The notes under the pieces were generated by a model, which searched no databases, was not told where the DNA came from, and was given only the letters and a program-made list of their open reading frames with translations. Below, piece by piece: positions 51,078 to 54,000 of a DNA stretch of 64,000 nucleotides. A program made the position numbers and the translations under genes. The DNA lies in assembly GCA_023374025.1 (NCBI GenBank), contig SIJG01000018.1:713947-777946 (forward strand), given 5' to 3'. Source of the DNA: Heterodera schachtii. Its lineage: Eukaryota > Nematoda > Chromadorea > Rhabditida > Heteroderidae. Position 1 is the stretch's first letter. The number at the start of each line of letters is the position of its first letter.

Positions 51078-54000
51078 CTATTTTTTGGCCCTCTCATTCT
51101 TAGTGAGAGACGACGGAGAGTACTGAGGAGAAGACGGCGAGTACTGCGGAGATGATGGGGAATACTGGGGTGAGGACGGCGAATATTGTGGAGACGATGG
51201 CGAGTATTGAGGGGACGACGGCGAATATTGAGGAGACGACGGAGAATACTGCGGAGATGACGGAGAATACTGGGGAGACGATGGGGAATACTGAGGGGAG
51301 GACGGCGAGTATTGAGGAGACGACGGAGAATATTGTGGAGATAATGGCGAATATTGAGGGGACGACGGCGAGTATTGTGGGGATGACGGAGAATATTGAG
51401 GCGATGACGGAGAATACTGGGGGGACGACGGTGAGTACTGTGGAGATGACGCAGAATACTAAATAAGACAAAGATAGAAAAATCGTATAGTTTAGCCCTC
51501 TACCTGAGGACTCGACGGTGAATAGCGAGGCGAACTTGGAGAGTATTGAGGCGATGTTGGAGAATAATTAGGAGACGTCGGAGAGTAGCTGGGCGACGTC
51601 GGACTGTAGGTGGGACTTGTAGGAGAATAGCGAGGCGAACTTGGAGAGTATTGAGGCGATGTTGGCGAATAGCTTGGAGACGTCGGAGAATAGCTTGGTG
51701 ATGTTGGGCTGTAACTGGGGCTTGTTGGCGAATAACGCGGAGAACTCGGCGAATATTGCGGCGATGTTGGTGAATAGCTTGGAGATGTTGGTGAATAGCT
51801 GGGCGACGTCGGACTGTAGGTTGGACTTGTTGCCGAATAGCGTGGAGAGCTTGGTGAGTACTGAGGCGATGTCAACGAATAATTTGGCGATGTTTGAGAG
51901 TAGCTCGGCGATGTTGTCCCGTAATTGGCTGCCGGCGAGAAAGAACCAGCAGGGGTCATCCCACCGCCAGCACCGATTGGACTCCAATCACCCGCATAGG
52001 AAGGAGTAACTCCAGCATGCCACGGAGTCCCTGTGGGACTCATTCCGGCGCTAAACAATAACACACGTTAAAACAAATAAATCCGTTTCTTAGCAAACCC
52101 TGGTGGCGACATTCCACCACCAAAAAGACCGCCTGCGGACTTCGCCATAATGAAATCGGGAATGTCCATTGCCAATTTGCATTTGTCGGAGTCTAGCACG
52201 AGGTCAAAGCACCCAGTACCTGCCTTAGCCATCTGTCCAAGCATAATGTTTTCAGAAACTCCTGAAATAAGAAGTTGATAGAGACAAGCATTTAACCAGT
52301 GCAGTAAAATTGCAAAATTATGCCCGAGTAGAAAACGGCATGTTCACCCACCTTTAACCGGGTCAGTTTCAGCGTGAACTGCCGCTTCCATTAAAATGTC
52401 AACCGTTTCTTCAAATGAGCATCGCATTAAAGCTCCAACCTCCTGTCTGTTGATCCCATGTCTGGTAATTGCCATCAGATACCCTTTTAGAGATTAACTT
52501 TCAATAAATAATAAACAACCAAAGAAACCTCTCGCCGTCATCACTTCACAAAGCAAAGCCAAGTGACGGTAATTGACGTATGATCCATCAAAGGAAATCA
52601 CTTGGTTCATCTCACGCTCAATCGCCTTGCGGACAGCTTCAATGCCCAACACCTCGAAGATTTCACAAATGTCGTTGCTGTGTGTACGAACGAAATCGAC
52701 GTCCGGCTCGCTTAGCACTCTCAGAAGTGCGGTTCCGTCCGTTTCGAGTAGCCATTCCGCCTGAGTGCTGAAAGTTCCGTCCGCTGTAATATGTATTCGT
52801 TTCTTGTCATCGGTGGTTGGTTTGTGCTTAATCAGTTAACGATTAAGTCGGTTTCTTATGTTTTCGCACATACCATATACACTTTAGCAATGGACTCAAT
52901 GCCCTGCAGTGTCAAATCGCTCAAAATATTCTGTTCGAGTGCCCTCAAAATGCCGTCGTCTTCCATCTTGTCGAGTTGTTCCTAATATTCCTTTTTAATA
53001 TATCACACTATAATTGACTATGTTTCAAACCTCTCCTTCTTTATCGGAAGATTGAGTGCTCAGCCGGAGATGGAACACGAGTTTGTCCGCATTGTCATCG
53101 GTGTAAATAACTTGCAAATCGTCTTTGAACGAATGGTTGATTTTCTCCGCAATTGCCTCCATGCTCAGCTTCTTGTCCGTCATTCTTTTCCTGTCTAGCT
53201 CAAGGCGAAGAAGCCAAGGACTGGCGTTGGTTGGGTCAAAGTCTGGCATTTCGTAGAAAATGTTGACCCATTCCTGGTCCTCTTCAATGCATGTGTTGCG
53301 TGGGTCCGGGTCGTAGTAAATTGCTGTGTTAGAAGTCACTTTCCTCATCGTCGTGTGTTCCAATTTGCACAACACATCCTTCGCCTTTTCCGCGTCTTTG
53401 GCAGCTATTCCCTATAAAATTCCAATCAATTAAATGAGTGTAAAACCGATTTGCAAAAACCTTCAGAAAAACAGTCAACGAAGGCGTTTTCGGCTTTTTC
53501 GACACGTTTATTATTTCTTTGAGCCGGGGAACACCGAGGGTAACATTCTTTGCAGAAACGCCGGCATAGTGAAAAGTGTTCAGTGTCATCTGAGTGGCCG
53601 GTTCCCCCAAACTTTGTGCCGCTAATGCGCCAACCATTTCGCCTGGTTGTGCAATAGCCTTTAAAACGGGAAAATATAAATATGAAATACCAGCATCAAA
53701 TTGCCTGGTCAAAGCGAGTTTCGATCTCGCCAAGAAGCCATTCAAATGCCTCAAGATTCAATTTATGGTATTTGGCCATTTGTTTTGCACAAAGTGTTGA
53801 ACGCAATAAAATGTTCATCAACAGTGTGGCATTATGTTGGGCTTGAATGCTAATAGAATCCTCTCCAGACACGATGACCAGTTTTTTGGTTAATTCGGTG
53901 ACCCCTTCGATTACTCGGACAGGACTCTGTGGAAGATAAAGAAAAAGGATATGCCAAAAATATTGGGAAACTCACCAAATCAACTGGTTTATTCATGGAA

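What the first reader, a model, noticed from the sequence alone, without database searches (positions are those of the whole stretch)
51105..51458. Distal CTD is an almost pure YSPSSPQ array lacking Thr4 and Ser7
Fourteen of 17 distal heptads are identical YSPSSPQ. Ser7 and Thr4 phosphorylation sites, which have known roles in snRNA and histone gene expression in vertebrates, are absent from this whole half, while Ser2 and Ser5 are kept. Synonymous codons differ between units, so the uniformity is at protein level and not simply recent duplication. The two halves are separated by a 45-nt intron, so alternative splicing could in principle alter the CTD.
Basis: partly seen in the sequence, partly recalled or inferred. 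Interest (0 to 1): 0.75.

Follow-up and report, generated by a model that had tools for sequence, protein, structure and literature searches.

The report
Nematode Pol II tail with YSPSSPQ array
The far half of this nematode's RNA polymerase II tail really is a nearly pure, long-maintained array of one non-standard seven-residue unit, but close relatives carry the same array, so it looks like a lineage variant of a normal enzyme and not a unique oddity.

Summary
The minus strand at 57636-51078 encodes RPB1 (24 exons, 1801 aa), found at one locus and 90% identical to Globodera pallida RPB1, so a Heterodera-like cyst nematode is likely. Exon 24 holds 17 heptads, 14 exactly YSPSSPQ, with no Thr4 and no Ser7; the 20 before it have 15 Thr4 and 7 Ser7. 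Synonymous sites between distal units are near saturation (pS 0.72) while proteins hardly differ (pN 0.03), so selection, not recent duplication, keeps them alike.

The reading as unusual is only partly right. Globodera, Ditylenchus and Bursaphelenchus have the same block, and YSPSSPQ is a common distal heptad in clade III and V worms. Position 4 is Ser, so a phosphate acceptor remains. Nothing supports alternative splicing; retaining the 45-nt intron would end the protein after 20 heptads.

Beyond the finding: 25 of 27 chromadorean entries have no Lys7 heptad, whereas a 2015 survey found Lys7 in every species it analysed in Cnidaria, Ecdysozoa and Deuterostomia. Gln7 is frequent instead in most of them. 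New variant of a known kind, moderate interest.

The parts
51078..57636 (-). RPB1 (ama-1) coding region, 24 exons, 1801 aa
   Evidence: gene model by splice-junction enumeration; 90% identity to Globodera pallida RPB1; PDB match of one exon to RPB1; Pfam RPB1 domains 3 and 4 in that exon and the CTD repeat in both CTD exons
51525..51923 (-). proximal CTD, heptads 1-19, with a 5-heptad (105 bp) higher-order unit and 4 YSPSSPR
   Evidence: heptad table; nt identity 0.80 at lag 5 against 0.59-0.63 at lags 1-4 and 6-9; TRF period 105
51504..51524 (-). heptad 20, YSPSSPQ, first unit of the distal block, last codons of exon 23
51459..51503 (-). intron 23, 45 nt, phase 0 on a heptad border; in-frame TAA at codon 4 if retained
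51123..51458 (-). distal CTD in exon 24, heptads 21-36: YSASSPQ, YSPSSPQ x4, YSPLSPQ, YSPSSPQ x10
   Evidence: all Ser codons of exon 24 are TCN (table)
51102..51122 (-). heptad 37, YSPSSLT, degenerate last unit
51078..51101 (-). basic C-terminal tip KNERAKK and stop TAG

Best explanation
This is the ordinary RPB1 of a cyst nematode. Its CTD is in two blocks: a proximal block of Thr4/Ser7-type and Arg7 heptads, and a distal block of YSPSSPQ. Shown by sequence: the distal units share an almost purely TCN serine code, differ freely at silent sites and hardly at all in protein, and a like block is present in three of the four other tylenchomorph worms sampled. Inferred from that: old tandem duplication from a TCN founder, followed by purifying selection. 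Inferred from other organisms: the distal block works as a normal phosphorylation scaffold for Ser2 and Ser5 (possibly Tyr1 and Ser4), recruiting elongation, splicing and 3'-end factors, while whatever needs Thr4 or Ser7 is done by the proximal half.
For: Gene model, locus count and relatives. Two-block composition with Fisher tests. pS 0.722 and pN 0.032 over 17 units, pN/pS 0.04. Serine codons: AGY 17 of 48 in heptads 1-19 and 1 of 53 in heptads 20-37 (Fisher p 8e-6); Ser4 is AGY in 4 of 4 proximal Arg7 heptads and TCN throughout the distal block. Like block in Globodera (13 exact), Ditylenchus (15), Bursaphelenchus (12), which group with the window and Aphelenchoides with support 100. T4S milder than T4A in cells.
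Against: No transcript or protein data; exon joining rests on splice-site logic and homology. The scaffold role is inferred. Aphelenchoides lies inside the clade but has 3 exact units and 6 Gln7 of 26 heptads, so purity is not universal there. Third-position identity slightly above expectation (p 0.041 and 0.017) leaves room for some later duplication or conversion.
Confidence: 0.75

Rival explanations
1. The uniform array is a recent tandem expansion or a product of concerted evolution (slippage, gene conversion) with little selection on the residues.
For: Units 27 and 31 identical in DNA; third-position identity 0.416 against 0.361 and 0.354 expected (p 0.041, 0.017); TRF scores periods 21, 42 and 63; serines nearly all TCN, which points to common descent.
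Against: pS 0.722 against pN 0.032: silent sites are near saturation, so most units are old and their residues are held. Like blocks in three related genera.
Confidence: 0.12
2. The 45-nt intron makes a switchable CTD: retention or alternative acceptors give a short (20-heptad) or slightly trimmed tail.
For: Intron lies exactly on a heptad border; retained reading is YSPSSPQVEG-stop; CAG codons for Gln7 place in-frame AG dinucleotides at the ends of heptads 21 and 22. Three clade III RPB1 annotations end at YSPSSPQ followed by V (P0004 and P0078; P0057).
Against: Length 45 fits the other introns (22 of 23 are 43-55 nt) and 6 of 23 have a length divisible by 3; no unusual RNA structure (z -0.78). 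Annotations that run into an intron may be poor gene models. No RNA data.
Confidence: 0.04
3. Gln7 took the place of Lys7: chromadorean nematodes dropped the acetylatable and methylatable Lys7 of other animals, and glutamine, an acetyl-lysine look-alike, became fixed in the distal CTD, alongside the loss of NELF-type pausing. (Not exclusive of the best explanation.)
For: No Lys7 heptad in 25 of 27 chromadorean entries; Lys7 present in both Trichinella entries, Priapulus, tick and bat. A survey states Lys7 in all species analysed in Cnidaria, Ecdysozoa and Deuterostomia. Gln7 at least 5 in 18 of 21 chromadorean entries tabulated. Gln7 and Lys7 counts anticorrelate over 117 entries (rho -0.61) and over the 91 non-nematodes (rho -0.50). 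C. elegans lacks NELF (PMC6436959, passage).
Against: The correlation is not corrected for kinship, and within the 26 nematodes it is weak (rho -0.30, p 0.13). Panagrellus and Strongyloides lack Lys7 yet have 1 and 0 Gln7. Priapulus has 5 of each. Mouse fibroblasts without Lys7 live. Insects without a strict Lys7 heptad exist too. NELF in this genome could not be tested.
Confidence: 0.1

Closest known systems
RPB1 CTD of Globodera pallida (P0001), Ditylenchus destructor (P0002), Bursaphelenchus okinawaensis (P0023)
   Same: distal block of 12-15 exact YSPSSPQ, runs of 7-9, Thr4 0-3 and Ser7 0-1 in the second half
   Different: Globodera and Bursaphelenchus have an Arg7 unit inside the block, Ditylenchus a short linker; the window has the longest run (10) among the entries I take as nematode
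RPB1 CTD of clade III and V nematodes (Enterobius, Onchocerca, hookworms, Mesorhabditis and others)
   Same: YSPSSPQ is a frequent distal heptad (3-8 exact); no Lys7 except in Pristionchus pacificus and the unnamed P0022
   Different: broken by linkers and by other heptads with Thr4 or with Val7, Thr7, Asn7
Vertebrate RPB1 CTD (bat entry P0059)
   Same: mostly consensus proximal half, distal half with few Ser7 (6 of 26)
   Different: distal Thr4 kept (21 of 26), 8 Lys7, no Gln7, acidic tip
Homogeneous non-consensus CTDs in other, mostly unnamed RPB1s (YSPTSPA runs up to 32, a YSPSSPA run of 28, and P0135 with 13 YSPSSPQ in a row)
   Same: long runs of one non-consensus heptad without Ser7, some also without Thr4
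   Different: another residue at position 7, or, in P0135, 8 Lys7 kept; source organisms mostly unknown

Membership tests
RPB1 (Pol II largest subunit) with CTD | RPB1 core domains | tested here: met
   PF04983 and PF05000 above cut-off in one exon; that exon matches human and yeast RPB1 chains; the joined protein is 90% identical to Globodera RPB1. The other core domains were not scanned on the window's own protein
RPB1 (Pol II largest subunit) with CTD | C-terminal tandem heptads with Tyr1, Ser2, Pro3, Ser5, Pro6 | tested here: met
   PF05001 above cut-off in both CTD exons; heptad table
RPB1 (Pol II largest subunit) with CTD | consensus Thr4 and Ser7 across the whole CTD | tested here: not met
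   present in part of the proximal block (15 and 7 of 20), absent in 17 of 17 distal heptads; it does not bar membership, as other RPB1s have long runs without Ser7
Tylenchomorph YSPSSPQ-block CTD (grouping made here) | 12 or more exact YSPSSPQ, mostly in the distal half | tested here: met
   15 in the window; 15, 13 and 12 in three relatives; Aphelenchoides in the same clade has 3
Animal CTD with acetylatable Lys7 | at least one Lys at position 7 | tested here: not met
   0 SPK in the window CTD; its 3 lysines are in the tip
Alternatively spliced CTD | transcripts differing in CTD length | not testable with these tools

The most novel reading that the evidence does not exclude
Chromadorean nematodes are an animal group whose Pol II tail has lost acetylatable Lys7; in most of them Gln7 units stand in its place, and tylenchomorphs, including this species, have multiplied a permanently 'acetyl-like' YSPSSPQ unit into a nearly pure block, linked to the loss of NELF-type promoter pausing.
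Probability: 0.1. Interest if true: 0.7.

Novelty: new variant of a known kind. Interest (0 to 1): 0.4.

Why it matters
It gives a natural experiment on the CTD code: an animal tail in which half the heptads offer Ser2 and Ser5 but neither Thr4 nor Ser7, in a lineage almost without Lys7. It suggests that C. elegans, the usual nematode model, is not typical of its phylum in the distal CTD (this rests on the unnamed entry P0022, which looks like Caenorhabditis; C. elegans itself was not fetched). It also supplies exceptions to a published statement that Lys7 occurs in every species analysed within Cnidaria, Ecdysozoa and Deuterostomia.

Tried and rejected
Second RPB1 copy: the CTD exon search of the whole genome scored 150 of 343 candidates and gave 53 matches; apart from the two CTD exons of this gene the listed matches are 13-48% identical, as expected of low-complexity sequence. 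The core exon search gave one match. RNA structure at the intron: nothing beyond shuffles. Rfam: one tRNA elsewhere in the window. A region search with the Globodera CTD did not rank nematodes first; it still supplied comparison sequences. A search with the C-terminal 602 residues, meant to catch fragmentary models of root-knot nematodes, listed no entry named Meloidogyne among its best 120 but gave two Trichinella entries. All three protein searches list only their best 120, so other nematodes may exist unseen. Literature: no paper in the held library has the string YSPSSPQ; the 2014 PNAS survey of CTD diversity (authors Yang and Stiller, title recalled) is not held, so an earlier description of nematode CTDs there could not be checked and I do not claim that the nematode pattern is unpublished. 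Passages of PMC6390993 and PMC6715403 were seen and not used.

Rows dropped: P0005, P0070 and P0071 (broken or partial models under 1700 aa) from the Lys7 count. Unnamed P0014 and P0022 were counted as nematode on sequence; P0102 and other unnamed entries were not. The 27 entries include several from one species and four whose ends look like intron read-through (P0004, P0007, P0057, P0078), so they are not 27 independent species. My heptad parser missed the single Lys7 of P0022; one search counts it. Five insects lack a strict SPK heptad but keep lysine in degenerate heptads, so absence of SPK alone is not special to nematodes. Panagrellus and Strongyloides keep lysines outside position 7.

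Full report
What is there. [quoted passage not shown] Enumerating splice junctions gave 24 exons and a protein of 1801 aa. One core exon matches human and yeast RPB1 chains in the PDB, Pfam finds RPB1 domains 3 and 4 there and the CTD repeat in both CTD exons, and the best protein match is Globodera pallida RPB1 at 90% identity over 91% of the query. The genome has 178.5 Mb in 356 contigs. A Heterodera-like cyst nematode is the likely source; that name is my inference. Searches of the whole genome with the CTD exon and with a core exon find one RPB1 locus (150 of 343 candidates scored).

The observation. Exon 24 (51458-51078) holds 17 heptads: YSASSPQ, four YSPSSPQ, YSPLSPQ, ten YSPSSPQ and a degenerate YSPSSLT, followed by KNERAKK and a stop. 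Fourteen of 17 are exact, as stated. One more YSPSSPQ ends exon 23. Across the intron, Thr4 falls from 15 of 20 to 0 of 17, Ser7 from 7 of 20 to 0 of 17, and Gln7 rises from 5 of 20 to 16 of 17 (Fisher p 3e-6, 0.009, 3e-5).

Is it recent duplication? Mostly not. Among the 15 exact units third-position identity is 0.416; codons drawn from the array's usage give 0.361 (sd 0.027, p 0.041) and from gene-body usage 0.354 (p 0.017), so a little likeness remains. Over heptads 20-36, pS is 0.722 and pN 0.032. Silent sites are close to saturation while the protein barely changes, which I read as purifying selection on the unit. Yet the units look related by descent: serine codons are AGY in 17 of 48 cases in heptads 1-19 and in 1 of 53 in heptads 20-37 (p 8e-6). 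The Ser4 of the proximal YSPSSPR units is AGY in 4 of 4 and that of the distal block TCN, which suggests that Ser4 arose at least twice. The proximal block has its own 5-heptad unit, with DNA identity 0.80 at lag 5 against 0.59-0.63 at the other lags below 10 (TRF period 105).

Comparison with other nematodes (clade labels recalled). One search scored 7977 candidates and listed the best 120. Among these the distal block is present in Globodera (13 exact, longest run 7), Ditylenchus (15, run 9) and Bursaphelenchus okinawaensis (12, run 7). Aphelenchoides besseyi is Ser4-rich but has 3 exact. The named clade III and V worms tabulated have 3-8 exact units mixed with other heptads and linkers. The unnamed P0022, which looks like Caenorhabditis, and Strongyloides have none, Panagrellus has one, and the two Trichinella entries have one or two. 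A maximum-likelihood tree of the core puts the window with Globodera, Ditylenchus, Bursaphelenchus and Aphelenchoides with support 100. Over all 314 sequences the longest YSPSSPQ run, 13, is in an unnamed metagenome protein (P0135), and runs of up to 32 YSPTSPA or 28 YSPSSPA exist in other, mostly unnamed RPB1s, so pure non-consensus arrays without Ser7 are not unheard of.

What the missing residues mean. Thr4 and Ser7 remain in the proximal half, so their functions need not be lost. Thr4 is replaced by Ser, not by a residue without a hydroxyl; a 2024 review reports a milder effect of T4S and S7A than of T4A in cultured cells (PMC11754735, passages). Ser7 is linked to snRNA genes through RPAP2 (PMC3262128, title and abstract start in the listing). 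In a bat RPB1 the second half has 6 Ser7 of 26 but 21 Thr4 of 26. So few distal Ser7 is nothing special, and loss of distal Thr4 is the less usual part.

The intron. Intron 23 is 45 nt, phase 0, on a heptad border. Twenty-two of 23 introns in this gene model are 43-55 nt, so it is ordinary. Retention reads YSPSSPQ-VEG-stop. Gln7 CAG codons give in-frame AG dinucleotides at the ends of heptads 21 and 22. No RNA data exist here, and folding shows nothing special.

A point outside the finding. The window's CTD has no lysine in any heptad; its three lysines are in the tip. Among entries over 1700 aa plus the window, 30 of 118 have no Lys7 heptad: 25 of the 27 that I take as chromadorean nematodes, and 5 insects, which keep lysines in degenerate heptads. 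The two nematodes with one Lys7 are Pristionchus pacificus and P0022. Both Trichinella entries, Priapulus, tick and bat have it. The 2015 survey says Lys7 is present in all species analysed in Cnidaria, Ecdysozoa and Deuterostomia and that C. elegans has one (PMC4362643, passages and one section). A 2015 eLife paper detects Lys7 methylation in C. elegans and finds that mouse fibroblasts live without Lys7 (PMC4758952, passages). Gln7 and Lys7 counts anticorrelate over 117 entries (rho -0.61) and over the 91 non-nematodes (rho -0.50), but not clearly within the 26 nematodes (rho -0.30, p 0.13); none of this is corrected for kinship. Gln7 is at least 5 in 18 of 21 chromadorean entries tabulated; against a simple swap, Panagrellus and Strongyloides lack Lys7 and have 1 and 0 Gln7. 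C. elegans has no NELF (PMC6436959, passage); whether this genome has it did not complete.

Verdict. A real, apparently selected, two-block CTD in a normal RPB1, shared with near relatives; a new variant of a known kind. The most novel reading that remains open is that Gln7 took the place of modifiable Lys7 in these worms.

Noticed in passing
window 51525-51923 (-): Proximal CTD is a 5-heptad higher-order repeat (about 80% DNA identity at that lag) carrying four Arg7 heptads YSPSSPR; a bat RPB1 has a single Arg7 heptad.
   Followed up: partly
window 51078-57636 (-), introns: 3 of 23 introns in the RPB1 model are GC-AG and only 3 of 23 donors fit GTRAG; 22 of 23 introns are 43-55 nt.
   Followed up: no
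P0001 (Globodera pallida RPB1): This RPB1 is labelled 'meiosis-specific APC/C activator protein ama1' in its source, apparently a mix-up of the gene name ama-1.
   Followed up: no
P0004, P0057, P0078: Three annotated clade III RPB1 proteins end with YSPSSPQ followed by V and a short non-repeat tail, as if read into an intron at a heptad border; CTD introns after a Gln7 codon may recur.
   Followed up: partly
P0135 (unnamed metagenome protein, 1336 aa): An RPB1 with 48 heptads, mostly Ser4, and 13 YSPSSPQ in a row but 8 Lys7; source organism unknown.
   Followed up: no
window 51081-51101 (-): C-terminal tip KNERAKK is basic, where the bat, Priapulus and Drosophila tips are acidic; Daphnia and Mesorhabditis tips are basic too.
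   Followed up: no
window 61009-61344 (+): Protein-kinase fragment (PF07714), probably part of a neighbouring plus-strand gene.
   Followed up: no
window 2567-2638 (-): tRNA-Met gene.
   Followed up: no
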